From: Gammaproteobacteria bacterium
Lineage (GTDB): Bacteria; Pseudomonadota; Gammaproteobacteria; Steroidobacterales; GCA-2729495
NCBI GenBank assembly: GCA_015709695.1
Contig: CP054183.1
Coordinates: forward strand, 1,910,992-1,974,991
Length of the DNA: 64,000 nt
Direction: 5' to 3'
Below are positions 24,606 through 57,999 of the stretch, one piece after another. Each line of letters begins with the position of its first letter. Position 1 is the first letter of the stretch. Position numbers and translations under genes: made by a program. Below the pieces are notes generated by a model. That model was not told where the DNA came from. It saw only the letters and a list, made by a program, of their open reading frames with translations, and ran no database searches.

Positions 24606-25034
24606 ATGCCGACGCGAACAGGAACAAGGGTTTCGGACAGGAGCGCCCGCCGCCGGGCCAGGGCCTGGCGCGGCCTCGGCGGTCCGCTGGCGGGACTGGC
24701 GACTGCCCTGCTGCTGGTGCCGGCGATCCTCGTCGCCGCCATCCTCGCGGCGCGCCTCATCGGCCGTGCCGCCCTGGCTGCGCTGCGGTTTCCCGCCGCT
24801 GCACCGCCTGCCGTCCCGCTCCCGGCAGCCAGGCCGGTCGCCCGCTATCACCAGTCCGATCGCAGCCTGGTGGCGCAGGCGCGGCGGCCACGCAGCAGCC
24901 ACCAGCATGCGTCCGCCCTGCGGGACTGGCAGTGCCCCGCCTGCGGGATTGCCTCGCACGCTATCCGGCGCCCGACATTCGATGGTGGAAACGCGCGTCC
25001 ATCGTCCGGAAGTGCACGCCGAACCATTCGCTGA
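24606..25034 (+). CDS. Doubtful hypothetical protein with one membrane segment
   Basis: The stretch 24483-24960 has no solid gene. The only candidate is an open frame of about 142 codons from the ATG at 24606 containing one strong hydrophobic segment (LAGLATALLLVPAILVAAIL) and a CPAC pair near the end. It overlaps the convergent hemerythrin gene by 74 nt and turns Arg/Ser-rich there, so it may be spurious or broken. No family recognised. Confidence 0.25.
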   Translation: MPTRTGTRVSDRSARRRARAWRGLGGPLAGLATALLLVPAILVAAILAARLIGRAALAALRFPAAAPPAVPLPAARPVARYHQSDRSLVAQARRPRSSHQHASALRDWQCPACGIASHAIRRPTFDGGNARPSSGSARRTIR

Positions 25035-25365
25035 GGCGCGTGGCGAACCGCTCCTCGACCAGCTCGCCGCCGGCCTCGAAGTCATCCATGATGTCGCGGA
25101 TGTCATCGAGCAGCAGCTCGTGATCACGCTTGTGCTCGGTGAACTGGTCGTAGCCCTGGTCGCGCATGACACGCTCTTCCAGGGCAAAGTGCGCGGAGAC
25201 CTTGGCGAACACTTCCCCCAGCAGGTCCGTCACCACCGACCTGTCGCCCGCCGCATCGAGGCTGGCGACCAGCGTGCGGTTGATCCAGGCGATCAGTTCC
25301 TGGTGCTCGTGGTCGACATCGGCAATGCCGATCGAGAACTCCGGTCGCCAATCGATGCGGGTCAT
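24961..25365 (-). CDS. Bacteriohemerythrin
   Basis: Single-domain hemerythrin of 134 residues. The diiron ligands are in DVDHEHQELIAWIN, HFALEERVM, EHKRDHELLL and WFGVHFRTMD. Hemerythrins bind O2 reversibly, and some bind NO. It is the last gene of the heme-copper enzyme operon, 16 nt after the cytochrome b/Fe-S fusion gene. An O2-binding protein here would fit storage or delivery of O2 made from NO, but that is inference. Start ATG at 25365 (MTRIDWRPEFS). Confidence 0.92.
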   Translation of the reverse strand: MTRIDWRPEFSIGIADVDHEHQELIAWINRTLVASLDAAGDRSVVTDLLGEVFAKVSAHFALEERVMRDQGYDQFTEHKRDHELLLDDIRDIMDDFEAGGELVEERFATRLSEWFGVHFRTMDARFHHRMSGAG

Positions 25366-25381
25366 CTGACGCAACTCGTGC

Positions 25382-27469
25382 CTATCTGAAGGTGAAGCCG
25401 CCCGGCTGCCGGAACTCGACGACCAGGTTCTGGCCAGGGCGAAGGTCGAGGTCCGCGGTGGCGCTGTAGTCGAAACCGGATTCGCGCCCGCTGTCACGGA
25501 GCCGGACCACTGCCTGCCTTGGACCAGCGGGGACCGGGAACCGCTCGAACAGGCTGGAGGGACCGTCGTTCCACAGGCCTGCCGGTTCCTCGGTGCCGGC
25601 AAACACCGTGCGGCCGTCCAGCTCCAGCTCAATGTATACCGGCCAGCGCCCACGCGCGCAATCCACGGGCCGGCGCATGTTGGGTGGCAGCTTGGCCAGT
25701 TCCTCCGGCGTCTGCTTCCGGCACTCCTGCAGGGGACGGCCCGCGTGGCTGAAGGTCAACGTCACCACGGCTTCGTTGTCGCCCCGCAGCGCCACCTCCG
25801 GCCTTGCCGAGAGGAAGCCCAGAGGCCACATGGCCGCGGCCAGCAGCAGGGCCTGCAGCGGCCAGCGCAGCCAGCCGGCGAGGCGCCGCGGCGGCGCCTG
25901 CCAGGCAGTCTGGACCGCGGCGTCGGCAGGCGCAGGGGTGTGCAAGGCCATGTCGCCGCGCCCGGCCAGCGAACCGATGAACCGTTCGACGGCATCCGCC
26001 CTCGCCCCCCGCTGCGCTGCATTCGCCCAGGACAGGGCCACGCGGTCGCGCGGTATGCGCTGGCGCAGGTAGGGATCGCGCGTGGCGGCGACGCGCTGGC
26101 TGGTCCATTCCGTCCCGAGGCGCTGGTAACAGCCGACCTCGTGGCAGCCGGCCAGCATCACGCCGGCCGCCATCTTCCGCGTGATCACCAGGTCGATGAA
26201 CGACGGCGGCACCATGCCCGCGCAGGGCACGTCGACCACGGCCGCCGAGCCGGTCGACGGCTGGGCAACATCCGCCCCGTGCTCGCAGCGGAACACCAGC
26301 ACGCCGGGCTGGCCGGCGAGATTCTGGCAGGCGCTGGCCACGCGGTCGCGCAGCGCCGCGATGCCATGCTCGGGCAGTTCGATCCCCGGCACCAGCGCCG
26401 TGGCGCGCCGGAACGGCGTCGCCGTCGGGCAGGCGCCGGCGCAGATGCCGCAGCTCACGCAGAGATCGGCATCGACGACGGCTTCCTGCGAGAACGGCGC
26501 ACCGTCGCTGCGCGCCTGCATGGTGATCGCGCTGTACGGGCAGTCATCGAAGCAGCGTGCGCAGCCATTGCAGTTGTCGAGGTGGACCACGGCCGGCGCC
26601 GGCCGCCGCAACGGAGGCGCCCAGGGCAGGATGGCCATCAGCACGAGGAAGCCCAGCGAAAGCGCCCAGAGTCCGCCGGCGCCGATGACATCCATCAGCG
26701 GGTAGAACGCCAGGTAGAACCAGTCGAGTCCGACCGAGGCGGCCAGCGCGTCGAGATTGGCGGCACCCTGGCTCAGGGCCGGCTCGACCAGCGACAGCGC
26801 CACCAGGGCCAGCACGGTGGCAATGCTCAGATTGCGCGCCGGATACACCCTGGCATGGCTGTAGCGCTGGATGTGCACCCACATGAACAGCAGCATCAGC
26901 AACGGCGCGGCGATGTGCGCGAAGGCCATGAGCGAGAAGAACCGGCCACTGAGGCCCGCATTGCTGACGAAGTTCCGCGAGATCGGCTCGGCGAAGATCG
27001 GCAGCGCATCCAGCCAGCGCGAGGTGGTCAGCGCCACGTACTGGGCCAGCTGGTCCCAGACCATCCAGTAGCCGGTGATGCCGCAGACGTAGATGAAGCC
27101 GATCAGCAGCAGGCCCGTCACCCAGGCGAACCAGCGCACGCCACGCAGGCGGTCCATGCCGAACTCGCGCAGCATGTGCACGAATGTCACCACCACCAGC
27201 GCGTCCGAGGCATAGCGGTGGATGCTGCGCAGGATGCCGCCAGCCCACCACTGGTCGTGGGTCAGCGCCTCCACCGAGGCATAGGCCTGGGTGACACCGG
27301 TATCGAAGAAGATGTAGAGGTAGATGCCGCTGATGGCAATCAGCCAGAACAGCAGCCAGCCCAGGGCACCGAGCTGCACCAGCGGATTGAGCTGCGGGCC
27401 GCAGACGGCATCGAGACCGCTTTCCAGGCGTTCGAAGCCGCCACGGATCAGGCGCTTCAGCCCGTTCAT
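25382..27469 (-). CDS. Cytochrome b / 2[4Fe-4S] ferredoxin / MvhD-like fusion protein
   Basis: Large redox fusion of 695 residues. Residues 1-300: a cytochrome b6-like N-terminal domain with paired His in helices (SIHRYASDALVVVTFVHML and AFAHIAAPLLMLLFMWVHIQ). Residues about 305-365: two ferredoxin motifs, CNGCARCFDDCP and CVSCGICAGACP. Residues about 390-490: a hydrogenase iron-sulfur subunit (MvhD/FrhD-like) domain with VDVPCAGMVPPSFID and LAGCHEVGCYQR. The C-terminus has one membrane helix and a beta-rich outer domain. It sits 31 nt downstream of the SCO gene in the heme-copper operon. A likely role is electron transfer between the quinone pool and an Fe-S or thiol carrier; partner unknown. 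Confidence 0.85.
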   Translation of the reverse strand: MNGLKRLIRGGFERLESGLDAVCGPQLNPLVQLGALGWLLFWLIAISGIYLYIFFDTGVTQAYASVEALTHDQWWAGGILRSIHRYASDALVVVTFVHMLREFGMDRLRGVRWFAWVTGLLLIGFIYVCGITGYWMVWDQLAQYVALTTSRWLDALPIFAEPISRNFVSNAGLSGRFFSLMAFAHIAAPLLMLLFMWVHIQRYSHARVYPARNLSIATVLALVALSLVEPALSQGAANLDALAASVGLDWFYLAFYPLMDVIGAGGLWALSLGFLVLMAILPWAPPLRRPAPAVVHLDNCNGCARCFDDCPYSAITMQARSDGAPFSQEAVVDADLCVSCGICAGACPTATPFRRATALVPGIELPEHGIAALRDRVASACQNLAGQPGVLVFRCEHGADVAQPSTGSAAVVDVPCAGMVPPSFIDLVITRKMAAGVMLAGCHEVGCYQRLGTEWTSQRVAATRDPYLRQRIPRDRVALSWANAAQRGARADAVERFIGSLAGRGDMALHTPAPADAAVQTAWQAPPRRLAGWLRWPLQALLLAAAMWPLGFLSARPEVALRGDNEAVVTLTFSHAGRPLQECRKQTPEELAKLPPNMRRPVDCARGRWPVYIELELDGRTVFAGTEEPAGLWNDGPSSLFERFPVPAGPRQAVVRLRDSGRESGFDYSATADLDLRPGQNLVVEFRQPGGFTFR

Positions 27470-27500: not shown

Positions 27501-28328
27501 CTACGAGCGCGGACGCGGACCGGGCTGCCCCTGTCGCCAGGAACGCAGGACGAAGCCGAGCACCAGCAGGGCGCAGCTCAGCCCGATGGCAATCTCGAGG
27601 ATGAGCGAATAATCGAAACGGTATCGGCCGCTCTTCGGATCGTAGGACGTGCATAACAGGCGTACCCGGGACAACAAATCAGCGAGCGGCCGCTCGGCCA
27701 CCGGCATGCCGAGCGCCAACCTTTTCAGGGGGTCGACGAGCATCGGCGGCTGGAATTCAGGCCCGTAGACCTGCTGGTACACCCGTCCGGCGCTGTCGAG
27801 GATTGTAACCTGTGTCAGGTGGTCGAACCCACCGGCGACGGGCGCGTAGACAAAGCCGGTCTCCCGGGCCAGGGCCGCCACTTCGGCTTCGTCACCGCTC
27901 AGGAAGTACCAGCGGGGATCCCTGATGCCGCGCTCGGCGGCATGCAGGCGCATCCGCTCGGGGGTGTCCACCCGCGTGTCGAATCCCACGGTGACGACCG
28001 AAAAGGCCCCGTCGCCCAGTGTCTCGCGCGCCACGCGCACCACCTGCGCGAGGCTCGAGGTCAGGGTCGGACAGATGAACGCGCAGCTGGTGTAGATGTA
28101 GCTCAGCACCACCGGTCGGCCCCGCAGCGTGGCCAGTTCCAGCGGCCGTCCGTCCTGGTCCGTGAAACGGTGATTGCCGGTCTCGCGGCCGATGGCTGCC
28201 TGGCTGGTGGCCAGGGCCTGTGCCTCGTCGAGTGCTGCCGCAGGGGCGCCGATGACAGACAACACCGTGGCGACTGCCGCTGCCAGCGGCCCGGAACGAA
28301 GGCGGCCGCGCAGGAACCGGGCGGCCAT
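27501..28328 (-). CDS. SCO1/SenC/PrrC copper chaperone family protein
   Basis: Protein of about 275 residues with a signal/anchor, a thioredoxin-like SCO domain holding the copper motif CAFICP (CxxxCP) and a later His in GGFDHLTQVTILD, and an extra C-terminal membrane helix (LILEIAIGLSCALLVLGFVL). SCO proteins deliver Cu to the CuA site of subunit II. This fits the CuA subunit encoded upstream. The first in-frame codon touching the heme O synthase stop is GTG at 28331; the ATG at 28328 is used. In ammonia oxidisers a senC gene likewise follows the genes of the heme-copper NO reductase sNOR. Confidence 0.9.
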   Translation of the reverse strand: MAARFLRGRLRSGPLAAAVATVLSVIGAPAAALDEAQALATSQAAIGRETGNHRFTDQDGRPLELATLRGRPVVLSYIYTSCAFICPTLTSSLAQVVRVARETLGDGAFSVVTVGFDTRVDTPERMRLHAAERGIRDPRWYFLSGDEAEVAALARETGFVYAPVAGGFDHLTQVTILDSAGRVYQQVYGPEFQPPMLVDPLKRLALGMPVAERPLADLLSRVRLLCTSYDPKSGRYRFDYSLILEIAIGLSCALLVLGFVLRSWRQGQPGPRPRS

Positions 28329-28331
28329 CAC

Positions 28332-29264
28332 TCAGGCCGCCAGGTGGCCGGACAGCACCGCGCTGGCAATGGCACCGAGGAGCAGCAGGCCGAGCTGCCA
28401 CAGCGAACCATGAAATGTGGCCATGGCATTGCCGCGGGTCGGGTTGCGGACGAACACCGCGCTGGTCCAGATGAAGTAAGCGCCGCCTGTGGCGGCACAC
28501 AGCACGTAGAACCAGCCCGTCACCAGCAGCGCCGGCAGCAGCGTCAGCGCCACCAGCACCACGGTGTGAACCAGGACCACGATGGCCAGCGGCCGGTCGG
28601 CCATGAAGTTCGGCAGCATGGGAATGCCGGCCCTGGCGTAGTCCCGCTTGTTGTAGAACGCCAGGCTCCAGAAATGGGGTGGCGTCCAGAAGAACAGCGC
28701 CGCCGCGAATACCCAGGCGGCTGCGGGCAGTTGCGGATCCACCGCCGCCGAGCCGGCCAGTGCCGCGAAGCTGCCGGCCAGCCCGCCGATGACGATGTTC
28801 AGCCAGGTGCGCCGCTTGAGCCATGCGGTGTAGATGTAGCCGTAGGTCAGCCCACCCAGCAACACCTGCGCCGCGGCCATGGTGTTCAGCACGGTGGCGG
28901 CCAGCACCACCGAGAATGCCGTGAGCCCGGCGATCAGCACCAGCCACAGCGGGCCCGGCGCCAGTTGCCCGGTCGCGAAGGGCCGGAGGCGGGTACGCAG
29001 CATGCGGGCATCGATATCCGGCTCCGACACCTGGTTGTAGGCACCGGCGGCCGCAGCCGAGAGGAACACCGCCAGCGCCAGCGCCAGCACCTCGCCGAGG
29101 CTCAGCGACGGCCCCGGGGTGACGGCGGCACCCGCCACCGCAGTCAAGGTGATCTCCAGCGCGATGCGTGGCTTGAAGACCGAGAACACCTGCCGCGCCC
29201 TGGCGGCGCGACCGGCCGATTCGGCGGCAGCACCCAGGACCGTCGCGGCAGGCTCGGCCGGCAT
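28332..29264 (-). CDS. cyoE: Heme O synthase (protoheme IX farnesyltransferase)
   Basis: UbiA-family prenyltransferase of 310 residues with nine hydrophobic segments. The diphosphate-binding motif NQVSEPDIDARMLRTRLRP and the second block FWTPPHFWSLAFYNKRDYA are diagnostic of CyoE/CtaB. It makes heme O from heme B for the heme-copper catalytic subunit encoded just upstream. No CtaA (heme A synthase) is in the operon, so the enzyme may use heme O or b, or CtaA lies elsewhere. Confidence 0.95.
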   Translation of the reverse strand: MPAEPAATVLGAAAESAGRAARARQVFSVFKPRIALEITLTAVAGAAVTPGPSLSLGEVLALALAVFLSAAAAGAYNQVSEPDIDARMLRTRLRPFATGQLAPGPLWLVLIAGLTAFSVVLAATVLNTMAAAQVLLGGLTYGYIYTAWLKRRTWLNIVIGGLAGSFAALAGSAAVDPQLPAAAWVFAAALFFWTPPHFWSLAFYNKRDYARAGIPMLPNFMADRPLAIVVLVHTVVLVALTLLPALLVTGWFYVLCAATGGAYFIWTSAVFVRNPTRGNAMATFHGSLWQLGLLLLGAIASAVLSGHLAA

Positions 29265-29271
29265 CCCCGGC

Positions 29272-30969
29272 CTACCTCAGGGGCCAGACTTCGGCCAGGT
29301 ACTTCCAGTTGACGAAGTAGTACAGGACGAAGGAGACGAAGAACACGCCCACGAGGAAGATCGTTCCCGGGATGTACATCGTGCCGGCGCTGCCGTACTC
29401 GGCCACCACCGGCCTGGCCATCGACAGCACCGGGGTGCTGGCCTTGGCGGGAGCATCGGCAGTGCGCTTGCCGAAGAACACCGAGGCCACGACGTTGACG
29501 ATGTACATGATGCCGCCGGTTGCCGCAAAGACCGCGCTGATGCCGTTGAGCGCCATCATCAGGAAGCCGGCCGAGGGAATCTGGTACGGGAAGATGGAAT
29601 CCGCGAACGTGATATCCCAGTGCCGGCGCGGAACCCCGAGGGTGCCGGCACCCATCATGAACAGCGAGATGCCGGCGGCACCAATGGCAAACACGTAGGG
29701 CTGCCACTTGGCCAGGCGCGGAAACATGATCTCGCGCTGCAACACCAGCGGCACCAGCAGGTAGGTAACCGCCATGAACGTCAGTGTCGTGCCCGTCACC
29801 ACCGTCGCGTGGAAATGCCCGGGGACGTACAGCGTGTTGTGCATGATGAGGTTGATCTGCTCGGTGCCCAGCACCACGCCGGATATGCCGCCGAGGAAAC
29901 CGAACATCACCAGCGAGAGGAACACGCCGGAAAACGCCGGGTTGCCCCAGGGCGCCTTGCGCAGCCACTCGAACATGCCCTTGTTGAAGCCCAGGCGCCG
30001 CTGTGCCGCCTCGATGGTCCCGGGCACGGTCATGGCGTGGATCATGCTGCCGAGCACGGCGAGGTACATGGCGTAGCTGGTATTGAAGATCTTCCACTCC
30101 GAGCCGACACCCGGCTCCACCAGCAGGTGGTGTGCACTCGCCAGCTGCAGGAAGAAGATATAGAGCAGGAAGGCCAGCCGGCTTGCCTTCTCCGACAGCG
30201 GCTTTGCCCCCAGGAGGATGGCGGCGACGGCGTACCAGATCGATACGTGCGCCGAGACGTTGATCTGCTGGGAAGAGTGGCCCATGGCCCACCAGACCAG
30301 CTTGTACATCAGCGGGTCGATGTTGCTGATGTATCCCAGCGACCACAGCCAGGTTGGCACCAGGATGATGGCCCCGGAGGCAAGCGTGAACACGGCGATG
30401 ATCGCTGCCGTCAGCGCACCGAAAGTGACCAGGGGCACGGAACCCTCATAGGTGCGCTCATCCTTGGCGATGACCAGGGTACCGAAGAACACGCCACAGG
30501 CCACCAGCGCGCCGACCGCGAAGATGATCAGGCCCAGGTAGAAGTTGGGCTCTGCCTTCAATGGCGTATAGGAGGTGAACATCACCGTCGAGTTGCCCTG
30601 CAGGATGGTGATGTTGGTGAGCACGGCGCCGATGATCATCAGCCAGAACGCAACCCACGCCGATCGCGGCGATGCCAGCCGGCAGTTCAGCAATACCGCG
30701 GAGGCGAAATACAGCACCGCCACTTCGAAGAAAATGATCCAGCACAGCAGCACGTCCAGGCCGTGTGCCGTCAGCGCCAGGTAGAACCAGTCCATCGGCA
30801 GCAGGTGCACGTCGGGCCAGCGCGTCAGGGCGACAGACAGGCCAAAGAGCCCGCCTATGGCCAGGAAGATCACCGCCGCGACGGCATTGGCCTTGATGAG
30901 CGTCTGTGCGCCGCTGTAGACCTTGAGGCCTGTGGTGGGGCAAACGCGAAACTGCTGGGGGGCGCTCAT
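29272..30969 (-). CDS. Heme-copper oxidoreductase catalytic subunit I, probable NO reductase (sNOR-like)
   Basis: Protein of 565 residues with about 12 membrane helices. All six metal-binding His of the superfamily are present: His69 (low-spin heme), His231, His280 and His281 (CuB), His385 (active-site heme) and His387 (low-spin heme, in YVPGHFHATVVTG). In oxygen reductases of the A and B families the CuB His is followed four residues later by the Tyr that is cross-linked to it (HPEVY). Here the motif is HSSQQIN, with Gln235 at the Tyr place. Loss of this Tyr is the hallmark of heme-copper NO reductases that keep a CuA subunit (sNOR, eNOR and related groups). Gene order subunit II-I with SCO nearby matches the norSY-senC arrangement of ammonia oxidisers. 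Which subgroup it belongs to needs phylogeny. ATGA overlap with subunit II. Confidence 0.85.
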   Translation of the reverse strand: MSAPQQFRVCPTTGLKVYSGAQTLIKANAVAAVIFLAIGGLFGLSVALTRWPDVHLLPMDWFYLALTAHGLDVLLCWIIFFEVAVLYFASAVLLNCRLASPRSAWVAFWLMIIGAVLTNITILQGNSTVMFTSYTPLKAEPNFYLGLIIFAVGALVACGVFFGTLVIAKDERTYEGSVPLVTFGALTAAIIAVFTLASGAIILVPTWLWSLGYISNIDPLMYKLVWWAMGHSSQQINVSAHVSIWYAVAAILLGAKPLSEKASRLAFLLYIFFLQLASAHHLLVEPGVGSEWKIFNTSYAMYLAVLGSMIHAMTVPGTIEAAQRRLGFNKGMFEWLRKAPWGNPAFSGVFLSLVMFGFLGGISGVVLGTEQINLIMHNTLYVPGHFHATVVTGTTLTFMAVTYLLVPLVLQREIMFPRLAKWQPYVFAIGAAGISLFMMGAGTLGVPRRHWDITFADSIFPYQIPSAGFLMMALNGISAVFAATGGIMYIVNVVASVFFGKRTADAPAKASTPVLSMARPVVAEYGSAGTMYIPGTIFLVGVFFVSFVLYYFVNWKYLAEVWPLR

Positions 30970-31526
30970 TCCTGCGGACTCCTGGCCGTACCCGAATCAA
31001 CCACGTACATGCGGCTGGCCATGGTGTGGTGGCCAAAGCCGCAGTACTCGTTGCAGAGGATGGCAAACTCGCCGCTGTCAGTCGGGGTCATGGTGAAGAC
31101 GTGCTCGTAGCCCGGCTGCACCTGGATGTTGATGTTCACCGGCTGCAGGGAGAAGCCGTGAGAATACTCCATCGCCGAGAGGTGGATGCGGTAGCTCTGC
31201 CCCTTCTCCAGTTCGAGGATCGGCCACCACATCCAGATGCGGCCGAGCAGATAGACATCGCCGCCCGGCGGCGGCCGCACCACGGGAATGCCGAGCTCGT
31301 CGCGCACCTTGTACTGCTCGGCCATGCGCTCGGCCTTGGCGGCAAAGGCCGCCGGCGTGATCTTGTAGGTGGTGTTGGCGAGGTTCTGCTCGCCCACCGC
31401 ATGCCAGTAGACCATCGTGAAGAACATCGCCAGGCCCCAGAGGAAGGCGATGATGATCCAGGTGAGCTCGACGCGATGGATCGGTTCCTTCCACCACAGG
31501 CGGTTGGCCGGAGACGTGATTGCCAT
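30966..31526 (-). CDS. Heme-copper enzyme subunit II with CuA site (NorY-like)
   Basis: Protein of 186 residues with a single N-terminal membrane anchor (LTWIIIAFLWGLAMFFTMVY) and a periplasmic cupredoxin domain. All CuA ligands are present: His123 (YSHGFSLQP), then Cys158, Glu160, Cys162, His166 and Met169 in CNEYCGFGHHTM. So electrons arrive from a soluble carrier such as cytochrome c, not from quinol directly. The single anchor and short length resemble B-type/sNOR subunit II. Its stop overlaps the start of subunit I by 4 nt. Confidence 0.93.
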   Translation of the reverse strand: MAITSPANRLWWKEPIHRVELTWIIIAFLWGLAMFFTMVYWHAVGEQNLANTTYKITPAAFAAKAERMAEQYKVRDELGIPVVRPPPGGDVYLLGRIWMWWPILELEKGQSYRIHLSAMEYSHGFSLQPVNINIQVQPGYEHVFTMTPTDSGEFAILCNEYCGFGHHTMASRMYVVDSGTARSPQE

Positions 31527-32207: not shown

Positions 32208-34619
32208 TTAGCGGGAGACCTTCGGCTCCTCCTGGGCCGCCCACTCCTTGCCACCCTCGTTGCCATACTCCTTGTGGTACTGCGCCCACTCGTCGGTGGT
32301 GACATCCACTTCCTTGCGCAGCCGGCTCGCACCGGAGAGCACGAAGTAGATGATCGGCAGCAGGCCACCGAAGATGAACACGGCACCACCGATCGTACGC
32401 AGGTAGGTCAGCGTCGCGAACACCGGGCCCATGATCACCTCGGTCGACCGCGCATACCAGAGGCCTTCCGTCAGCACCACGTAGATCTGGTACAGGCCCA
32501 CCGGGAACAGGTCGAGGAACATCATCAGCGCGAGGCCGATCTGGAACGACCAGAACACCGTCCGCACCAGCTTCTCGTTCCAGGCAGTCTTCTGGAACAG
32601 GTGCTGGAGGCAGAACAGCATGCCGGCCAGGGCGACGTTGCCCTTCACCCCGAACATGGCGGCATGCGCGTGGTTGCCGGTCATGTAAGTGGCGTGCTCG
32701 TAGTAGTTGACGATCGGCAGCGTGATCAGCGAACCGAACACCCCGGCACCGAAGATGTTCCAGAAGTTGACGCCGAGGATGAACAGCCACACGCCTTCCA
32801 TCACCACGACCTGCTTGCCCTGGACGCGGAACTCGTGGGCACGGCCACCCTCCTGGCGCATCTGCCAGGCATCAAGGGTGAGCAGCAGCAGCGGCAGGAC
32901 CTGCAGCGTGGAGAACACGCTGCCCACCGCGATGATGCCCGTCGGCTTCGCGATCCAGTAGAAGTTGTGGGAGATGCCGTTGATGGCGGTCACGAAGAAG
33001 AGCATGACGGCCAGGAAGATGACGCGCTCGGCCATCATCCGGGTCACCAGGCCCATCTGCACCAGCAGGTAGGCCACGATCACGGTCGTGAAGACCTCGA
33101 AGGTGACCTCCACCCACATGTGCACCGTCATCCAGCGCCAGTAGTCGGAGATGGCGAAGTTGGAATCCGGCGTCATGAGGACGCTGAAGAACAGGAACAG
33201 CACCATCACGCCGCTGCCCCAGAGCAGCCACGCCGGCACCGACCAGACGTTCTTCACGCTGATCCAGGGCTTCACACCGCGGTAGATGATGTAGATCCAC
33301 AGCGAGAAGCCGAGCAGCAGCACCCACTGGAAGAAGCGGCCGAGCTCGATGAACTCCCAGCCCTGGCTGCCGAACCAGTAGGACATCGTGTCGTCGATCC
33401 AGCCGCGCTGGCCGGCATAGATGCCGCCCACGGCACCGACAGCGACTACGCAGGACAGGAAGAACAGCAGGTTGATCAGGAACTTCTGCCCCTTCGGCAC
33501 CTTCGTCAGGCGCGGCAGGAAGAAGATCGTGTAACCCACCCAGCACATGAAGAACCAGTAGATCTGCAGGATCGCGTGGTAGCTGCGCGAAACCGTGAAC
33601 GGCAGCAGCTCGTTGAGGTTGATGCCGAACGGCCGGATGAAGTCCCAGGCGCTCACCACGCCACCCAGCACCTGCAGGCCGAAGACGATCATCGCCAGGG
33701 CGAAGAACTTGTAGGTGCTGCGCTGGGTCTCGCGGACGTAGCCATTCTCGAGGTCCGAGGTCGTCAGCGAGTGCCCGTTGGCGCCTTCCTGGGAGAACAC
33801 GTCGACCGGCTGCTCCTTCATCTGGCCGTAGACGTACAGCACGACGCTGATGCCGATCCACAGCGCGAAGATGGAGATGAAGGTCCAGATGAACGTCGCG
33901 GTGGTCGGTACGTTGCCCACCTCGGGTTCATAAGGCCAGTTGTGCGTGTAGCTGTACTCCTCGCCCGGCCGGTTGGCCGCCGAGACCCAGCCGCCCCAGT
34001 AGAAGAAGGTCGTCAGGTCACGCAGGTTCTGCTCACCGGATACCTGGTTGATCGGATCCATGCGATCCGGATAGGTCGGGTCGGTGAACATCCGGGTGTA
34101 GTGCTGCAGCAACTCGTCGAACGCGAAGACCTGGGCGTCGTTCAGGACGATGGTCCCGGCCTCGGCGTTGTAGGTGTTGTTGTGCATCTCCCGGAGGACA
34201 CGCTGCGCGATGGCATCCTTCTCGTAGCCGGTGAGGGACTCGGCACCGGTGCGGCGCTTCGTCTCTTCCTCGTAATACGAGCGCATCGACGCGCCGATCC
34301 GGTGCATGGCATCGGCGGTGAAGTCCGGGCCACGCTCGGCACCGTCGCCCCAGAAGGAGCCGTAGAGCATCAGGCCGCGGAGGTGGAAGATCTCCTTGCC
34401 GCGTGCCAGCTGCTCGGTCGTCATCAACACCTGGCCGTTCGAGGTGACGAAATTGGCCAGCGGCGGCGCCCCGACGTAGGTCTCCCTGCCCAGGTAGACC
34501 AGGCCCGCGATACTGATGATGGCGACAATCAGGAAATGCGTGAACCAGTTTTTCTTGTTCAGCAACCACATTGCCAGATTGGAGTCGCCGGTACTCACGT
34601 TTGCTGCTTTTGTACTCAT
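32208..34619 (-). CDS. nod: Putative nitric oxide dismutase (qNOR-like, Nod)
   Basis: Protein of 803 residues with the qNOR layout: an N-terminal helix, a periplasmic cytochrome-c-like fold without heme motif (about 45-240), then 12-13 membrane helices. Heme-ligand His650 and His652 (NHAHAAM), and active-site His500, Glu504 and His551 are kept. Departures from qNOR: the quinol-site block GGLTAHYxxE reads GGVVSAWDFI (His to Ala324, Glu to Ile328); PGD reads IGG (Asp to Gly745); the second FeB His of GHHYYW is Asn552 in ISHNFYW; and SALEP reads STLQV (Glu to Gln573). These are the substitutions described for the Nod proteins of Methylomirabilis oxyfera and strain HdN1, proposed to convert 2 NO to N2 and O2. 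Start ATG at 34619 has AGGAG 8 nt upstream. An FNR box lies 81 nt upstream. A true quinol-oxidising NO reductase is unlikely. Confidence 0.88.
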   Translation of the reverse strand: MSTKAANVSTGDSNLAMWLLNKKNWFTHFLIVAIISIAGLVYLGRETYVGAPPLANFVTSNGQVLMTTEQLARGKEIFHLRGLMLYGSFWGDGAERGPDFTADAMHRIGASMRSYYEEETKRRTGAESLTGYEKDAIAQRVLREMHNNTYNAEAGTIVLNDAQVFAFDELLQHYTRMFTDPTYPDRMDPINQVSGEQNLRDLTTFFYWGGWVSAANRPGEEYSYTHNWPYEPEVGNVPTTATFIWTFISIFALWIGISVVLYVYGQMKEQPVDVFSQEGANGHSLTTSDLENGYVRETQRSTYKFFALAMIVFGLQVLGGVVSAWDFIRPFGINLNELLPFTVSRSYHAILQIYWFFMCWVGYTIFFLPRLTKVPKGQKFLINLLFFLSCVVAVGAVGGIYAGQRGWIDDTMSYWFGSQGWEFIELGRFFQWVLLLGFSLWIYIIYRGVKPWISVKNVWSVPAWLLWGSGVMVLFLFFSVLMTPDSNFAISDYWRWMTVHMWVEVTFEVFTTVIVAYLLVQMGLVTRMMAERVIFLAVMLFFVTAINGISHNFYWIAKPTGIIAVGSVFSTLQVLPLLLLTLDAWQMRQEGGRAHEFRVQGKQVVVMEGVWLFILGVNFWNIFGAGVFGSLITLPIVNYYEHATYMTGNHAHAAMFGVKGNVALAGMLFCLQHLFQKTAWNEKLVRTVFWSFQIGLALMMFLDLFPVGLYQIYVVLTEGLWYARSTEVIMGPVFATLTYLRTIGGAVFIFGGLLPIIYFVLSGASRLRKEVDVTTDEWAQYHKEYGNEGGKEWAAQEEPKVSR

Positions 34620-34928
34620 GACTATGGCTCCTGCGATTAGGGTCGCCACTCCCGACCGAAATGGTGATTGCAGGGTGCATCGCCCCTGCATTTCTGGTCA
34701 TGATCTAGATCAAGTTTGCGAGTGGAATAACGAGTACTGCTGTACGGGATATTACGTAGCGCAGGAAGCCGCATGGTGCGTCGGCGGCACCGGCCGCGGC
34801 GTCGACAACTTGGGTTCTCTACTTATTGACCCGAGACAGAGGGCTCACAAGAATCGGGATGTGCAATGCCGTGCGAGCTGGTCGGTCGCGTGGACGCCAC
34901 ACACCGCTCCCGGCAGGACGGAGGGAAA
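34620..34928 (+). other. Divergent intergenic region between nod and the repeat proteins
   Basis: This 309-nt gap is less G+C-rich than the genes around it and holds the FNR box at 34700-34713. No credible gene lies in it. It must contain the nod promoter on the minus strand and probably one for the repeat-protein pair on the plus strand. Confidence 0.6.
34700..34713 (-). promoter_or_regulatory. FNR/DNR-type box upstream of nod
   Basis: ATGAT-CTAG-ATCAA on the plus strand, one base from the consensus TTGAT-N4-ATCAA and almost a perfect palindrome. Its centre is 87 nt from the nod start codon, leaving a leader of about 45 nt if FNR acts at -41.5. An FNR with matching recognition residues is encoded at 38839-39615. 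Confidence 0.75.
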
Positions 34929-35714
34929 ATGGCTTTTTTCAAGTCGCTGATCCGTGCCTGGGCGGCACCCGGAGCGACTGCACCGCCCGCGGCTGGCGAG
35001 CCCGGGGAGCCAGGCGATGCCCAGGCGCGGCCGGCCACCAACGGCGCCGGTGGCCCACCCGACGGCGTGGTCGAGACCCGCTTCGCCAACGGCCAGGTCG
35101 GCTTCAGGGGAAATTATCTCAAGGGCCAGCTGCACGGCGTGCAGGAGTGGTTCCACGCCAGCGGCGCGCTGCGTGAACGACAGGAGTACAAGCACGACAG
35201 GAAGGACGGGCCCTGGGTGCTGTATCACCCGAACGGCCAGCTGCGATCGAGCGGAACCTTCGTCGCGGACCTGCGCAACGGGCCGTTCGAGGTCCACTAC
35301 ATCAGCGGACAGCTGCGTTCCCGCGGCACCCACCGCAACGACCTGCGCGAGGGACCATACGAGTCCTACCATGAGAATGGTCAGCTGCAGGCCAGGGGCG
35401 AATTTCGCGAAGGCAAGCGCTCCGGTCCATGGGAGGAATACCACCCGAACGGCGAACTGCGGCTGAAGGCCAGCTACCGGAACGATGTCGTCGATGGCAC
35501 GCTCGAACTCTTCTACGACGATGGCCAGCTGCAGCTGCGGGAGAACTACCGCGACGGCAAGCGCGACGGCAGCTGCGAGTCCTATCATGCGAATGGCCAG
35601 CTGAAGAGCCGCGGTCACTACCGCTTCGGCGTGCTCGATGGCCGCTTCGAGACCTACGCGAGCGACGGCCAGCTGCTGGAGATGGGTGAGTTCCGCAATG
35701 GCGCGCGGCAATAG
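34929..35714 (+). CDS. MORN-2/YwqK-like repeat protein, nine repeats
   Basis: Protein of 261 residues. After a short amphipathic N-terminus (MAFFKSLIRAWAA) and a Pro/Ala/Gly linker, about nine repeats of 24 residues follow, each of the form GPWxxYHPNGQLRxxGxYRxGxRxG. This is the MORN-2 repeat found in YwqK-family proteins, thought to form an extended beta sheet; some YwqK proteins act as antitoxins. No signal peptide. Start at 34929 is set by GGAGGGAAA. Followed 18 nt later by a second, shorter protein of the same kind, and divergent from nod. Function unknown. Confidence 0.85.
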   Translation: MAFFKSLIRAWAAPGATAPPAAGEPGEPGDAQARPATNGAGGPPDGVVETRFANGQVGFRGNYLKGQLHGVQEWFHASGALRERQEYKHDRKDGPWVLYHPNGQLRSSGTFVADLRNGPFEVHYISGQLRSRGTHRNDLREGPYESYHENGQLQARGEFREGKRSGPWEEYHPNGELRLKASYRNDVVDGTLELFYDDGQLQLRENYRDGKRDGSCESYHANGQLKSRGHYRFGVLDGRFETYASDGQLLEMGEFRNGARQ

Positions 35715-35732
35715 CGCCATGGGGTCACGGCC

Positions 35733-36305
35733 ATGCTGAACCTCAGGTACTACATCAGGCGCTGGCTATCCCGGTTCAGGCAACCCGACGGGCCGGCCGA
35801 AGGCCTCCACGACAACGGCAACATCGGCTTCCGGGGCACGTTCAGGGACGGCAGGGAGGAAGGGCCCTGGGAGTTCTACTATCCCAATGGCCAGCTGGAA
35901 ATCGAGTGCACCTACCGGCATGGCGAGCGCGATGGCCCCTGGCGCATCTTCCACGAGAATGGCCGCCTCAAGGTGCGCGGCAGCTCCCGCGAGGGCAAAC
36001 CCGATGGCCTCTTCGAACGCTTCGACGCCACCGGACAGCTCTACGAGCGGCTGAACTACAAGGCCGGTGATCTCGAAGGCCTGTACGAGAAATTCCACGA
36101 GAATGGCCGACTCGCCGAAACCGGCCGCTACCGCGAGGGCCGGCCCGAGGGCCTGTGGCACTTCTACTATCCATGCGGTCAGATCCGCAAACGCGGCCGG
36201 TTCATGAACCGCAGGCGGTCAGGGCTCTGGGAATACTTCGACGAGGCCGGCCGGCTGACCCGCCAGCACAATTTCAAGACCGACGACGCTGGCGCGTTCT
36301 ACTGA
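35733..36305 (+). CDS. MORN-2/YwqK-like repeat protein, seven repeats
   Basis: Protein of 190 residues built of about seven 24-residue repeats of the same type as its upstream neighbour (for example GPWEFYYPNGQLEIECTYR). It starts MLNLRYYIRRWLSRFRQP, a basic amphipathic helix that could bind membrane. The pair probably arose by tandem duplication and then changed repeat number. Same operon as 34929-35714. No toxin-like partner is visible. Confidence 0.85.
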   Translation: MLNLRYYIRRWLSRFRQPDGPAEGLHDNGNIGFRGTFRDGREEGPWEFYYPNGQLEIECTYRHGERDGPWRIFHENGRLKVRGSSREGKPDGLFERFDATGQLYERLNYKAGDLEGLYEKFHENGRLAETGRYREGRPEGLWHFYYPCGQIRKRGRFMNRRRSGLWEYFDEAGRLTRQHNFKTDDAGAFY

Positions 36306-37706: not shown

Positions 37707-38828
37707 TCATCGCGCCGCCCGCAGCGCCGCCGGCACCAGCACGGCGGTACCGAGGCCGAAGGCAACCAGCCACGCCATCCCGGCCAGCCAGAGCACCAGT
37801 TCGCGATGCCCCGGCAAGACCCAGCCGCCGCCGACGCGCAGTGTCACCGCCACCACCAGGGCAAGCTGCAGTGCCTGCAGCAGCGTCGGCGAGGCAGGCA
37901 GTATCCCGGAGCGCTGTCGCGCAACACGCAGCAGCATCACCAGCGTCACCGTGCCGATGCCGCCTGCTGCCAGTGCATGCAGCGCACCGGCGTCCGGCGG
38001 CAGGATGAACCCGAGGCGCTGCAGGCCGATGAGCGTGAGGCCCAGCCCAAGCCAGAAGAAGCCGAGGTGCAGGGGCCAGGTCTCCGGATCGCCGAGCACG
38101 CTCAGGCTGTGCCAGCGCACCATCTGCAGCGCCAGCACGACGGCCACCGCAAGCGCTGCCAGGCCTGCCGCAAGCCCCAGTCCCAGCATGTCCAGCACCA
38201 GCAGGGAGAGCATGCCGAAGATGCCGGCCGCCTCCAGTCGTGGGCGCGGCACGACACGCAGCACCTGGCCCTGCGCCCGCAGCGACCCCACGGTCGCCGT
38301 CGGCACCGCACGGCCGCCCATCACCATCACCAGCAACGAAACCACGTAGACCGACAGCACGGCCGGATTCTGCGCCGGCATGGGCAGCCAGCCCACCTCG
38401 GCGGCGTACGTGGCCACGCCAGCCGCGCCGAGTACCAGCATGATCATCGGGAAAGCCAGGTTGCGGGCGCGTTTCGCCGCGTGGAAACGGCGGAAGCCGA
38501 GAATGGCCACCGTTGCCGGGAACGCCGCACCCGCCGCCAGCTGGAGCCAGGGCAGCAGGGTTCCAGGGGGAACGATCCAGGCCAGCCGCCCGAGCAGCCA
38601 CAGCAACCAGAGGCCGACGACCCGCCGCAGCGGGAACGCCGGCAGCAGGTAGCCGGCGATCACGGCGAAGCTGTAGCCGAACACCATCTCGCGCCCATGC
38701 CAGGATGCGGAGGCCGCAGGCCAGTCGACGATACCCTGGCGCACCGCCAGCCAGGCCAGCACGTTGAGCGGCGCCAGCAGCAGGGCGGAAGGGAAGAACA
38801 GTCGCCAGGGCTCGAAGAGACGCGCCAA
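37707..38828 (-). CDS. nnrS: NnrS family protein
   Basis: Heme-copper-like membrane protein of 373 residues with 12 hydrophobic segments. NnrS markers: SASWHGREMVFGYSFAVIAGYLL near the N-terminus, and conserved residues in the GGRAVPTATV and HALAAGGIGTVTLVMLLR blocks. NnrS proteins protect denitrifying cells from NO stress. The start is a TTG at 38828 with AGGAA 7 nt upstream. It lies 10 nt after the fnr stop, so regulator and NnrS are one operon. Confidence 0.9.
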   Translation of the reverse strand: MARLFEPWRLFFPSALLLAPLNVLAWLAVRQGIVDWPAASASWHGREMVFGYSFAVIAGYLLPAFPLRRVVGLWLLWLLGRLAWIVPPGTLLPWLQLAAGAAFPATVAILGFRRFHAAKRARNLAFPMIMLVLGAAGVATYAAEVGWLPMPAQNPAVLSVYVVSLLVMVMGGRAVPTATVGSLRAQGQVLRVVPRPRLEAAGIFGMLSLLVLDMLGLGLAAGLAALAVAVVLALQMVRWHSLSVLGDPETWPLHLGFFWLGLGLTLIGLQRLGFILPPDAGALHALAAGGIGTVTLVMLLRVARQRSGILPASPTLLQALQLALVVAVTLRVGGGWVLPGHRELVLWLAGMAWLVAFGLGTAVLVPAALRAAR

Positions 38829-38838
38829 TACCGGGTTC

Positions 38839-39615
38839 CTAGCCGTAGGGCAGCATGGGTCCGGCGAGGGCCTGCAGACGGTCCTCGTCGAGCAGCCTGA
38901 CTGCCTTGCCCCTGGCGCTGATCACGCCCTGCCTGCGCAGCTGGGTCAGCACCCGGCTGACGGTCTCGGGCGCCAGCCGCAGGTGGTTGGCGATGTCCTC
39001 GCGCGACATGACCAGTCCGAACTCGGAGGACTGCCTGCCCTGGGCCCTGAGCCGGCCCGACACACTCAGCAGGAAGGCGGCGACGCGCACCACGGCATTG
39101 TGGTCGCCGGTCAATCGGCCGGTGTACAGCGCCGAACGGCTGGCAATGCGCAGCAGGCCGAGGACCAGTTCGGGAAACTGCTGCGACAGCCTCAGGATTT
39201 CGCTGAAGGAGAGATAGCACACCGTGGAAGTGGCCAGCGCGATGGCGTTGCCCGCGTGCCGCCGCTGGTAGATCGATGCAAAGCCGAGGACCTCGCCCGG
39301 CAGGTGGAAATTGAGGATGTGCTCGCGGCCGTCCGCATCGATCACCGTGGATTTCAGGCAGCCCGAGCGCACGGCGAACAGCGAGGTGAACTCCTCGCCC
39401 GCACGGAACAGCACCGTGCCGGCGCGCAGCACGCGCTGGCGCGTGACCATCGATTCCAGCTGCGCGAGTTGCCCTTCCGGCACACTCGAAGGCAGGCAGA
39501 CCCCCGCCACCGGGCAGCGGGTGCACGGCTGGATGCCCTCGGACTCGGCGTTGCGCCGTGCCGCCAGGCGGGCTCCCTGATTGGCGTCCGCCACCGCGGA
39601 CCCGTGCCCTGCCAT
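38839..39615 (-). CDS. fnr: FNR-type oxygen-sensing transcription regulator
   Basis: Crp/Fnr regulator of 258 residues. Cys31, Cys34, Cys40 and Cys133 have exactly the spacing of the [4Fe-4S] ligands of E. coli FNR (20, 23, 29, 122). The recognition helix has Glu217, Ser220 and Arg221 (PETVSRVL), the trio that reads TTGAT half-sites. A cNMP-fold domain and dimer helix lie between. So it is a true O2-sensing FNR and not a cluster-free Dnr. Boxes fitting it occur before nod and Rieske genes in this window. Cotranscribed with nnrS. Confidence 0.95.
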   Translation of the reverse strand: MAGHGSAVADANQGARLAARRNAESEGIQPCTRCPVAGVCLPSSVPEGQLAQLESMVTRQRVLRAGTVLFRAGEEFTSLFAVRSGCLKSTVIDADGREHILNFHLPGEVLGFASIYQRRHAGNAIALATSTVCYLSFSEILRLSQQFPELVLGLLRIASRSALYTGRLTGDHNAVVRVAAFLLSVSGRLRAQGRQSSEFGLVMSREDIANHLRLAPETVSRVLTQLRRQGVISARGKAVRLLDEDRLQALAGPMLPYG

Positions 39616-39734: not shown

Positions 39735-40871
39735 TCAGTCGCGCGATTCCTTCGAGGCCGGCTTCAGCGGCACCGTCTTGTGCACCCAGTTCTTCGGGTC
39801 CTCACGGCGGCCCGGCGACGGGATCACCAGCATTTCCGTCTGGCTGCGGCGCTCGTACTCGTCGAGATCGATCTCGTAGCCCTGGGCAGCCCACTTGAAG
39901 CAGCGCTTGCGGAAGGCGGTCTCCATGCTGTCGGTCTCGGTGAGGAACTCGTCGGAGAGCTTCGACGGCGTGATGGGCGGCTTGAGATCCTCGACCACCG
40001 AGAGATCCTCCACCACTGCCAGCTGGATGCCCGCCATGCGCTCGGCATCGAACTGGGGCTCCTTCAGGTAGTTGCGCGCCTGCCAGCCGATGGCACGGCT
40101 CAGCTTGCGATCCACCGGGGTTCTCGCAGTGAAGTTGATCTGTGTCATGCCTTCCTTGAACGTCGGCTGGATGCGGTGGCAGAGGCCCACCAGGCTGAAC
40201 TCCAGCGCCACGTTGGTGTTCAGGCGCTCCTCGCCCAGCATCTTGGCCATCTCGCCCGTCTTCTGGTCAGGCTTCGGCGCCGGCTTGCGGCGCGTGACCC
40301 GTGCGCCCCACTCGGACTCCTCCAGCGGGAAGTTCTCCAGCTTGGGCGTGCGCCGGGCGCCGAACTGCCGGTGCACGAACTGCGTGTGGGCGGTATCCAG
40401 CGAGTTCTCCTCGAAGCGCATCCAGTTGGTCTTGGCCTCGAAGCCGTAGGGAATGCGATGCCAGCCGACCGGGTCGTCGTACTCGGGGAACAGGTCGGGG
40501 ATGCGCGGGCGCTGGCTCTCGGGCAGGTCGCCGAGGAACACCCAGACCCAGCCGTACTTCTCCTGCGTCGGATAGCTGTCGACGCGCACGCGCTTGGGGA
40601 TGTTGATCTCGGGACCCATCGCCGGGATCAGGGTGCAGCGGCCGTCACCGTTGAATTCCCAGCCGTGGTAGGGGCAAACGACGTTGCAGCCGCTCATCTC
40701 GCCCTTGCCGAGCGACGCGCCCCGGTGGCAGCAGACGTCGCTCAGGCAGACCGCCTTGTCCTTCTCGTCGCGGAACAGCACGAAATCGCAGGCCAGCATG
40801 CGCACCTTCAGCGGCTTGTCCTTGCGCACTTCGGAGGCGGCTGCAGCCACGTACCAGTTGTTGATCAGCAT
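39735..40871 (-). CDS. Rieske non-heme iron oxygenase, alpha subunit (1)
   Basis: Protein of 378 residues. The Rieske [2Fe-2S] ligands are in VCCHRGASLG and VVCPYHGWEF; the mononuclear iron facial triad is in NSLDTAHTQFVH (Asp, His, His). It is the most diverged of four oxygenases in this island and lacks the PTHGH segment of the others. Family members hydroxylate or demethylate aromatics and steroids with O2 and electrons from a reductase. Start at 40871 (MLINNWYVAAA). The ATG at 40871 is preferred over an in-frame start at 40925. An FNR-like palindrome lies 90-103 nt upstream. Confidence 0.92.
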   Translation of the reverse strand: MLINNWYVAAAASEVRKDKPLKVRMLACDFVLFRDEKDKAVCLSDVCCHRGASLGKGEMSGCNVVCPYHGWEFNGDGRCTLIPAMGPEINIPKRVRVDSYPTQEKYGWVWVFLGDLPESQRPRIPDLFPEYDDPVGWHRIPYGFEAKTNWMRFEENSLDTAHTQFVHRQFGARRTPKLENFPLEESEWGARVTRRKPAPKPDQKTGEMAKMLGEERLNTNVALEFSLVGLCHRIQPTFKEGMTQINFTARTPVDRKLSRAIGWQARNYLKEPQFDAERMAGIQLAVVEDLSVVEDLKPPITPSKLSDEFLTETDSMETAFRKRCFKWAAQGYEIDLDEYERRSQTEMLVIPSPGRREDPKNWVHKTVPLKPASKESRD

Positions 40872-40960: not shown

Positions 40961-40974
40961 CTGATGTACATCAG
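40961..40974 (-). promoter_or_regulatory. FNR-like palindrome upstream of Rieske gene 1
   Basis: CTGAT-GTAC-ATCAG, a perfect 14-nt palindrome with FNR spacing and one base off in each half-site. It is placed 90 nt before the start of the minus-strand Rieske gene, in the divergent region shared with Rieske gene 2. Confidence 0.6.
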
Positions 40975-47312: not shown

Positions 47313-47348
47313 TTGACCTGCATCAGGCGCCCGGGTGATCCAGGTCAT
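47313..47348. promoter_or_regulatory. Two FNR-like sites between Rieske gene 4 and ubiM
   Basis: TTGAC-CTGC-ATCAG at 47313-47326 and a weaker GTGAT-CCAG-GTCAT at 47335-47348. Both keep the TGA/TCA cores and 4-nt spacing. They could serve either of the divergent genes. Confidence 0.45.
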
Positions 47349-48652: not shown

Positions 48653-50959
<2,307 letters not shown>

Positions 50960-57980: not shown

Positions 57981-57999
57981 GTCGGCGTCCTCTGGGGGC

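What the first reader, a model, noticed from the sequence alone, without database searches (positions are those of the whole stretch)
32208..34619. Candidate nitric oxide dismutase (Nod): oxygen from NO
The qNOR-like protein has lost every residue of the quinol site I can align (His to Ala324, Glu to Ile328, Asp to Gly745) and has Asn552 for the second FeB-binding His and Gln573 for the conserved Glu, while keeping the heme ligands, His500, Glu504 and His551. This set is what separates the Nod proteins of Methylomirabilis oxyfera and gammaproteobacterium HdN1 from NO reductases. If right, this organism can make O2 internally from nitrite-derived NO. Biochemical proof of Nod is still thin in general, so the function is a family-based inference.
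Basis: partly seen in the sequence, partly recalled or inferred. Interest (0 to 1): 0.95.

Follow-up and report, generated by a model that had tools for sequence, protein, structure and literature searches.

The report
Nitric oxide dismutase in a gammaproteobacterium
A bacterium related to the alkane-degrading nitrate breather HdN1 carries a gene of the family thought to split nitric oxide into nitrogen and oxygen, near nitrite-reduction genes and oxygen-using enzymes, so it may make its own oxygen without air; the gene family is known, and its reaction has not been proven with purified enzyme.

Summary
Window 32208-34619 (minus strand) encodes an 803-aa qNOR-like protein with the Nod hallmarks: Asn552 and Gln573 replace an FeB-ligand His and the catalytic Glu, the quinol site is lost, the other haem and FeB ligands are kept (two quinol equivalences shift by one residue). 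It is 65% identical to HdN1 Nod, 60% to Methylomirabilis Nod, 33% to the same genome's own qNOR. A tree puts it in a 100/100 Nod clade, with HdN1 (98/94). The single-contig genome has narG, nirS (14 kb from nod) and no detectable nosZ, but also a true qNOR, a NorB-like gene and, just downstream of nod, a CuA/B-type haem-copper enzyme resembling an NO reductase.

Nod from a gammaproteobacterium is a new member of a known kind. The new part is context: nod and a divergent pair of Rieske oxygenases carry FNR-like boxes conserved in a close relative; four Rieske oxygenases, UbiM, a PhyH dioxygenase and a bacteriohaemerythrin lie within about 25 kb. This suggests, without proving, that Nod oxygen feeds oxygenases under anoxia. 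Against it: similar Rieske oxygenases occur in 40 of 40 family genomes, with or without nod, and are not beside nod in less close relatives. O2 production remains inferred.

The parts
32208..34619 (-). nod: putative NO dismutase, 803 aa
34700..34713 (.). FNR-type palindrome (1 mismatch to TTGATN4ATCAA) about 81 bp upstream of the nod ATG, in the gap shared with the divergent MORN gene
   Evidence: equivalents with 1-2 mismatches at -91 to -98 in L004, L005, L006, L009, a weaker one in L008, none seen in L007 or L010
31839..32018 (-). 59-aa predicted membrane peptide downstream of nod
   Evidence: relatives near nod in L004, L005, L063
31548..31706 (-). 52-aa predicted membrane peptide, possibly a small subunit of the neighbouring haem-copper enzyme (inference)
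   Evidence: relatives near nod in L004, L005, L015, L063
30966..31526 (-). CuA subunit (subunit II-like)
   Evidence: CoxB and NosZ CuA-domain similarity, below cut-offs
29272..30969 (-). B-type (ba3-related) haem-copper subunit I with the active-site Tyr replaced by Gln: candidate NO reductase (sNOR-like)
28332..29264 (-). haem o synthase (CtaB/CyoE)
   Evidence: TIGR01473 over cut-off
27501..28328 (-). SCO1/SenC copper chaperone
25382..27469 (-). cytochrome b / 4Fe-4S / FlpD-like fusion protein
24961..25365 (-). bacteriohaemerythrin; metal-ligand pattern (recalled) kept in the alignment with solved bacteriohaemerythrin 4xpw
   Evidence: relatives near nod in L004 and L015
23706..24482 (+). 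PhyH-type dioxygenase; about 60% identical genes lie directly downstream of nod in L019 and L020
36316..36639 (-). ferredoxin FdxA; a relative lies near nod in 18 of 71 loci
34866..36305 (+). two MORN-repeat proteins divergent from nod; the first has a relative near nod in 17 of 71 loci
37707..38828 (-). NnrS (NO response membrane protein)
38839..39615 (-). FNR-type regulator with CxxCx5C (C31, C34, C40) and C133; NCBIfam Fnr model 174 bits, below its cut-off of 228
39735..40871 (-). Rieske oxygenase 1 (VanA_C type)
40961..40974 (.). FNR-type palindrome in the divergent Rieske 1/2 promoter
   Evidence: unchanged in L004
41069..41082 (.). second FNR-type palindrome in the same promoter
   Evidence: unchanged in L004
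41146..42357 (+). Rieske oxygenase 2 (VanA_C type)
43465..44640 (+). Rieske oxygenase 3 (68% identical to 2)
44749..45927 (-). second NnrS
46051..47205 (-). Rieske oxygenase 4 (VanA_C type)
47313..47326 (.). weaker FNR-type site (2 mismatches) in the divergent Rieske 4 / UbiM promoter
47408..48652 (+). UbiM, flavin-dependent ubiquinone hydroxylase (O2 use recalled)
   Evidence: 541.6 bits, cut-off 420
48815..50959 (+). NirS, cytochrome cd1 nitrite reductase with an extra N-terminal cytochrome c domain: the NO source

Best explanation
The gene is a genuine member of the Nod family, sharing a clade with the gene of gammaproteobacterium HdN1. Most likely mechanism: NarG and NirS turn nitrate into NO; Nod, a qNOR-derived membrane enzyme that can no longer take electrons from quinol, binds NO at its haem b3/non-haem metal site (one His ligand now Asn, the nearby Glu now Gln) and rearranges it to N2 and O2 without outside electrons. 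The O2 is used inside the cell by oxygenases and oxidases. Shown here: family membership, active-site and quinol-site changes, predicted fold, genes for an NO-producing pathway in the same genome, no detectable nosZ, an FNR-like box in front of nod. Inferred: the reaction, its products and the use of the O2.
For: Residue set fixed in Nod and opposite in qNOR: N552 71 of 71 vs His 22 of 22; Q573 71 of 71 vs Glu 22 of 22; position 745 68 G + 2 A + 1 I vs Asp 22 of 22 (5 of 5 rows without the Asn-bearing search peptide agree); 21 columns separate the two groups at the thresholds. Nod monophyly 100/100 and HdN1 kinship 98/94. Predicted fold matches qNOR 3ayf best, TM 0.84 by query, 0.90 by target. 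NarG 2151 bits; NirS 878 bits to a solved Pseudomonas aeruginosa cd1 enzyme; no NosZ over cut-off (the model rings over cut-off in 5 of 147 order genomes, so it can find one). Counting the window's own genome, nod in 9 of 10 same-genus and 18 of 40 same-family genomes, 5 of the 18 as partial matches (my count).
Against: The enzyme has not been isolated and characterised in any organism according to PMC13386854 section 21, which also cites opposing results. The genome keeps a canonical qNOR, a NorB-like gene and a B-type NO-reductase-like enzyme, so NO can also leave as N2O. Nod is not found in same-genus genome G022, estimated 100% complete in 80 contigs, so it is dispensable in the genus. Two family genomes with nod matches also have nosZ (G015, G031), so nod does not simply replace nosZ.
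Confidence: 0.72

Rival explanations
1. The protein is an NO reductase that has changed its electron donor: it still makes N2O (or detoxifies NO) but takes electrons from a partner other than quinol, for example the ferredoxin or cytochrome encoded nearby.
For: The fold and most haem and metal ligands are kept. NO-response genes (two NnrS) sit close by. PMC13386854 (section 21) notes NO-response regulators near other nod genes and a possible detoxification role. FdxA has a relative near nod in 18 of 71 loci.
Against: The third FeB His and Glu581 are replaced in all 71 rows with letters; no haem c motif (CxxCH) occurs in the protein (read), so there is no obvious alternative electron entry; the same genome already has a canonical qNOR and other NO-reductase candidates.
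Confidence: 0.17
2. Nod disproportionates NO to N2O and O2 (4 NO to 2 N2O + O2) rather than to N2 and O2; the organism releases N2O.
For: The sequence evidence cannot tell the two stoichiometries apart. No NosZ was detected that would remove N2O.
Against: Ettwig et al. report O2 and N2 formation and no appreciable N2O in Methylomirabilis, which carries the same enzyme type (PMC3413370; abstract and passages).
Confidence: 0.08
3. Rival to the novel reading rather than to family membership: the oxygenases near nod are unrelated to it; the FNR-type sites shut them off in anoxia (FNR as repressor), and they work only with outside air.
For: Similar Rieske oxygenases occur in 40 of 40 family genomes, including those without nod. 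Among 71 nod loci they lie near nod only in L004; relatives with 8-10 kb of upstream DNA (L006, L007, L008, L009, L115) show none there. The direction of FNR action cannot be read from the sequence. Of 24 window sites with up to 2 mismatches, 20 are not fully intergenic, so the window-wide excess is not itself evidence of regulation.
Against: The only 4 fully intergenic sites lie at nod and at the two divergent Rieske promoters, which argues for shared control, and the cluster also holds nirS and NnrS.
Confidence: 0.45

Closest known systems
Nod of gammaproteobacterium HdN1 (locus L031)
   Same: 65% identical; same Asn/Gln/no-quinol-site pattern; same clade at 98/94; FdxA and MORN relatives nearby in both
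   Different: HdN1 has Ile where the window has Gly745; in its fetched 8-kb flanks no relative of the B-type haem-copper cluster or the Rieske genes was found
Nod of Candidatus Methylomirabilis (L039; DAMO_2434/2437 type)
   Same: 60% identical, same signature
   Different: In Methylomirabilis methane monooxygenase genes lie near nod (PMC13386854 section 21); methane monooxygenase was not searched for here. L039 carries a second, partial nod copy at its contig end; the window's genome has one
Quinol-dependent NO reductase (qNOR), e.g. 3AYF and the genome's own copy L002
   Same: Same fold (TM 0.84/0.90 to 3ayf), same haem ligands, 32-33% identity
   Different: Lacks the quinol His/Glu/Asp, the third FeB His and Glu581
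nod loci of FEN-1191 (Steroidobacterales) MAGs in PMC13386854
   Same: An NO-response protein, TonB receptor, hydrolase and CoA-ligase-type genes occur near nod there (section 21) and in this window
   Different: That paper reports no clear oxygen-consuming system in immediate nod proximity; here oxygenases lie about 5-14 kb away and some share FNR-like sites with nod. Whether the window belongs to that lineage was not tested

Membership tests
Nod (putative NO dismutase) | FeB-ligand His560 replaced by Asn | tested here: met
   N552; 71 of 71 Nod rows with a letter, 0 of 22 qNOR
Nod (putative NO dismutase) | Glu581 near the catalytic site replaced by Gln | tested here: met
   Q573; 71 of 71 Nod rows with a letter, 0 of 22 qNOR
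Nod (putative NO dismutase) | Loss of quinol-site residues (His328, Glu332, Asp746) | tested here: met
   W325, R329, G745
Nod (putative NO dismutase) | Remaining haem and FeB ligands kept | tested here: met
   H348, H500, E504, H551, H650, H652
Nod (putative NO dismutase) | qNOR-type fold with haem-c-less cytochrome c domain | tested here: met
   Pfam PF22085 + PF00115; model mean pLDDT 80.5, best match 3ayf; no CxxCH in the protein
Nod (putative NO dismutase) | Falls in the Nod clade, outside qNOR | tested here: met
   100/100; with HdN1 98/94 (43 rows chosen from those in hand)
Nod (putative NO dismutase) | Produces O2 and N2 from NO | not testable with these tools
   needs isotope assay
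qNOR | Quinol-binding His/Glu/Asp | tested here: not met
   all three replaced
qNOR | Three FeB-ligand histidines and Glu581 | tested here: not met
   H560N, E581Q
sNOR / B-type NO reductase (gene 29272-30969) | B-type subunit I with CuA subunit and SenC/SCO gene alongside | tested here: met
   norSY with senC from passages of PMC6967387
sNOR / B-type NO reductase (gene 29272-30969) | Cross-linked active-site Tyr of oxidases absent | tested here: met
   Gln at that column in 6 of 6 rows with letters (window, L004, L005, L015, L025, L063), Tyr in ba3; that this speaks against O2 reduction is recalled knowledge, and PMC6967387 (passages) argues sNOR may be an oxidase
sNOR / B-type NO reductase (gene 29272-30969) | Groups with Nitrosomonas NorY in a tree | not tested
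   no Nitrosomonas sequence was fetched

The most novel reading that the evidence does not exclude
The window holds an oxygen-production-and-use island: NirS makes NO, Nod turns it into O2, a bacteriohaemerythrin buffers or carries the O2, and Rieske oxygenases, a PhyH dioxygenase and the ubiquinone hydroxylase UbiM consume it, with nod and the first oxygenase pair switched on together by the island's own FNR in the absence of air. Oxygenases under an anoxia activator make sense only if O2 is made inside the cell, which would answer the open question of what Nod oxygen is for outside methane and alkane oxidisers.
Probability: 0.25. Interest if true: 0.85.

Novelty: new member of a known kind. 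Interest (0 to 1): 0.55.

Why it matters
Nod is one of few proposed ways to make O2 in the dark, and its reaction, and the use of its O2 in most carriers, are unproven (PMC13386854 section 21). A single-contig, 99.7% complete genome with narG, nirS and nod, no detectable nosZ, and FNR-type sites shared by nod and oxygenases gives a concrete, testable case: which oxygenases are induced by nitrate without air, and does this depend on nod. It also shows nod beside several NO-reductase candidates, so presence of NOR need not rule out oxygenic denitrification.

Tried and rejected
First residue count took the longest overlapping frame and so included wrong-frame proteins (L027 at least), giving one false His at 581; redone by similarity. 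The tree, in which L027 had a branch of length 10 and the Nod group needed 2 changes, was rebuilt with corrected rows (24 Nod, 16 qNOR, 3 cNOR, chosen from those in hand; own NorB-like row left out there).

Plasmid- or phage-borne nod: 318 plasmid records match, all under 60% identity (40 rows seen, 4 opened), no phage record.

Copper nitrite reductase NirK: 5 multicopper matches, none over cut-off, so NirS is taken as the NO source.

Co-occurrence of the Rieske oxygenases with nod across the family: not found; 40 of 40 genomes have them at E <= 1e-60.

FNR-type site at other nod genes: with at most 1 mismatch in the 250 bp upstream, 4 of 64 nod copies against about 1 expected, so the control is lineage-specific, not general. 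The intergenic excess in the window (4 sites against 0.64 expected, reached by 1 of 300 first-order reshuffles) was noticed after the fact, on my own gene calls.

Sigma-70 promoter and terminator scan at nod: no clear excess (1 promoter-like against 0.7, 4 terminator-like against 2.1).

NosZ by PF18764 rang nowhere, controls included, so it says nothing; absence rests.
Full report
WHAT IS THERE. The frame at 32208-34619 lies on the minus strand, 803 aa, starting at ATG 34619, with an AGGAG eight bases before that ATG. Pfam gives the NorB cytochrome-c-like domain and COX1; NCBIfam gives no family. The window is part of a single-contig genome of 3,105,498 bases, 99.7% complete.

THE SIGNATURE. 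Against the Geobacillus qNOR 3AYF: H508 is H500, E512 is E504, H559 is H551, H560 is N552, E581 is Q573, D746 is G745; H355, H651 and H653 are H348, H650 and H652. The phmmer alignment with the Alcaligenes enzyme instead pairs A324 with the His; the region is loose, but no reading restores a quinol residue. Among 74 Nod rows (window plus 73 reading frames from the 71 loci; fragments included, gaps not counted) N is found in 71 of 71, Q in 71 of 71, G/A/I at 746 in 71 of 71 and never H at 328 in 67 of 67; 22 qNORs have H, E, D and H at these columns, 22 of 22 each. Twenty-one columns separate the groups at the thresholds used. The loci were brought in by six peptides, one of which contains the Asn and occurs in 65 of the 73 rows; the 5 rows with letters there that lack it also have N and Q, including the first copy of L061, which has none of the six peptides.

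THE TREE AND FOLD. A careful IQ-TREE run with 43 rows puts all 24 Nods on one side of a 100/100 branch; the window's protein pairs with L004 (96% identical, a gammaproteobacterial MAG, isolate 'PRO3') and, at 98/94, with HdN1. The genome's own qNOR sits among qNORs. Rooted on cNOR, the qNORs are not one clade in that tree, consistent with Nod arising within the qNOR radiation, though the branches there carry 92/80 and 98/90. An AlphaFold2 model from 35 Nods (mean pLDDT 80.5, pTM 0.83) matches 3ayf best, TM 0.84 by query and 0.90 by target.

HOW COMMON. In one search of 40 family genomes, the window's included, 18 hold a match of 58% or more to the window's Nod (13 nearly full length, 5 partial), 9 of 10 in the genus; G022, estimated 100% complete in 80 contigs, has none (my count from its match table). 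Nod is thus a widespread but losable trait of this family. The relatives fetched span Pseudomonadota, Methylomirabilota, Acidobacteriota, Myxococcota, Planctomycetota, Bacteroidota and others by record title.

THE REST OF THE NITROGEN PATHWAY. NarG: one match over cut-off, 2151 bits. NirS: one match, inside the window at 48815-50959, 14 kb from nod; 878 bits to P. aeruginosa cytochrome cd1, with an additional N-terminal cytochrome c domain. NirK: nothing over cut-off. NosZ: the only hits in this genome are weak, at the CuA end of the profile; TIGR04244 found five members over cut-off among 147 genomes of the order, so that negative has a positive control. PF00115 finds six haem-copper subunits I in the genome: Nod, the B-type gene below, the canonical qNOR, a NorB-like gene, one that reads as a cbb3 CcoN (my reading of the sequence) and one high-scoring COX1 (542 bits) whose type I did not check.

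THE RUN DOWNSTREAM OF NOD. On the same strand follow two small predicted membrane peptides, a CuA subunit, a B-type subunit I, haem o synthase, SCO1, a cytochrome b/iron-sulfur fusion and a bacteriohaemerythrin. The subunit I keeps the six haem/Cu histidines seen in ba3 but has Gln for the active-site Tyr, in 6 of 6 rows with letters there. From recalled knowledge, loss of that Tyr points to NO rather than O2 reduction; PMC6967387 (passages) describes a norSY and senC unit in Nitrosomonas and argues it might instead be a high-affinity oxidase. Relatives of this subunit lie near nod in 6 of 71 loci (L004, L005, L015, L022, L025, L063), in L022 on the other strand; many loci are short, so this is a lower bound.

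THE OXYGEN USERS. Upstream of nod lie an FNR-type regulator with the four cysteines expected of an oxygen-sensing FNR (recalled motif; the NCBIfam Fnr model scores below its cut-off), two NnrS, four Rieske oxygenases with VanA_C domains and the [2Fe-2S] and His/Asp motifs (recalled) in all four, and UbiM. The genome has 12 Rieske-domain matches in all. A PhyH dioxygenase lies on the other side, and about 60% identical genes lie directly downstream of nod in two alphaproteobacterial loci, L019 and L020. In the window 24 sites match TTGATN4ATCAA with up to 2 mismatches against 5.8 expected, but 20 of them are not fully intergenic; the 4 that are lie one at nod (in the gap shared with the MORN gene), two between Rieske 1 and 2, one between Rieske 4 and UbiM. 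Of 5 exact TGATN4ATCA palindromes (0.35 expected) 3 are intergenic, at nod and between Rieske 1 and 2, and 2 lie inside genes. In L004 the Rieske 1/2 intergenic stretch is only 189 of 274 aligned bases identical, but both boxes are unchanged; at nod, four relatives (L004, L005, L006, L009) have a box with 1-2 mismatches at the same distance, L008 a weaker one, L007 and L010 none. This footprint supports real sites and shared control of nod and oxygenases in this lineage. It does not say whether FNR activates or represses.

AGAINST THE ISLAND IDEA. Rieske oxygenases of this type occur in 40 of 40 family genomes whether or not they have nod. Near nod they were found only in the window and L004; L006, L007, L008, L009 and L115, with 8-10 kb upstream of nod, show none there. 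NirS lies near nod at high identity in only one fetched locus, L052 (71%). So a fixed evolutionary tie is not shown.

LITERATURE. Ettwig 2012 (PMC3413370; abstract, passages and section 3 part 3 read) described the Asn, Gln and quinol-site changes and called the function speculation. PMC13386854 (2026; passages, section 21 in full, two pages of references) reports 66 nod MAGs, no clear oxygen-consuming system in immediate nod proximity, and no biochemical proof. PMC10264387 (passages) uses diagnostic residues in the same way. PMC6636425 was seen in passages only and not used. Searches of the held library for 'nitric oxide dismutase' with 'Rieske' gave 2 papers and with 'hemerythrin' 1 (listings only, not read), so I do not claim that no one has proposed such a link.

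VERDICT. The finding stands: a true member of the Nod family in a single-contig gammaproteobacterial genome that can feed it NO (class by kinship of record titles and the HdN1 grouping; the genome itself is unnamed). As a gene it is a new member of a known kind. What lifts it above routine is the shared FNR-type sites of nod and neighbouring oxygenases, which make the question 'what is Nod oxygen for' testable in this organism.

Noticed in passing
56952-60780 (-): A type II DMSO-reductase family alpha/beta pair; nearest solved relatives are a DMSO reductase family type II molybdopterin subunit (5e7o, 4ydd; perchlorate reductase as I recall), then ethylbenzene dehydrogenase. Substrate unknown; another region matching NarG weakly in a similar way lies at about 1,622,700-1,625,400 of the genome.
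   Followed up: partly
29272-31526 (-): B-type haem-copper enzyme with CuA subunit and Gln for the active-site Tyr, near nod in 6 of 71 loci.
   Followed up: partly
34866-36305 (+): MORN-repeat proteins divergent from nod; a relative of the first lies near nod in 17 of 71 loci including HdN1; role unknown.
   Followed up: no
L061 5320-10307: A Flavobacteriales MAG carries two adjacent nod copies, 43% and 52% identical to the window's, the first being the deepest Nod branch of the tree.
   Followed up: partly
48815-50959 (+): NirS with an additional N-terminal cytochrome c domain that resembles the one fused to some copper nitrite reductases.
   Followed up: no
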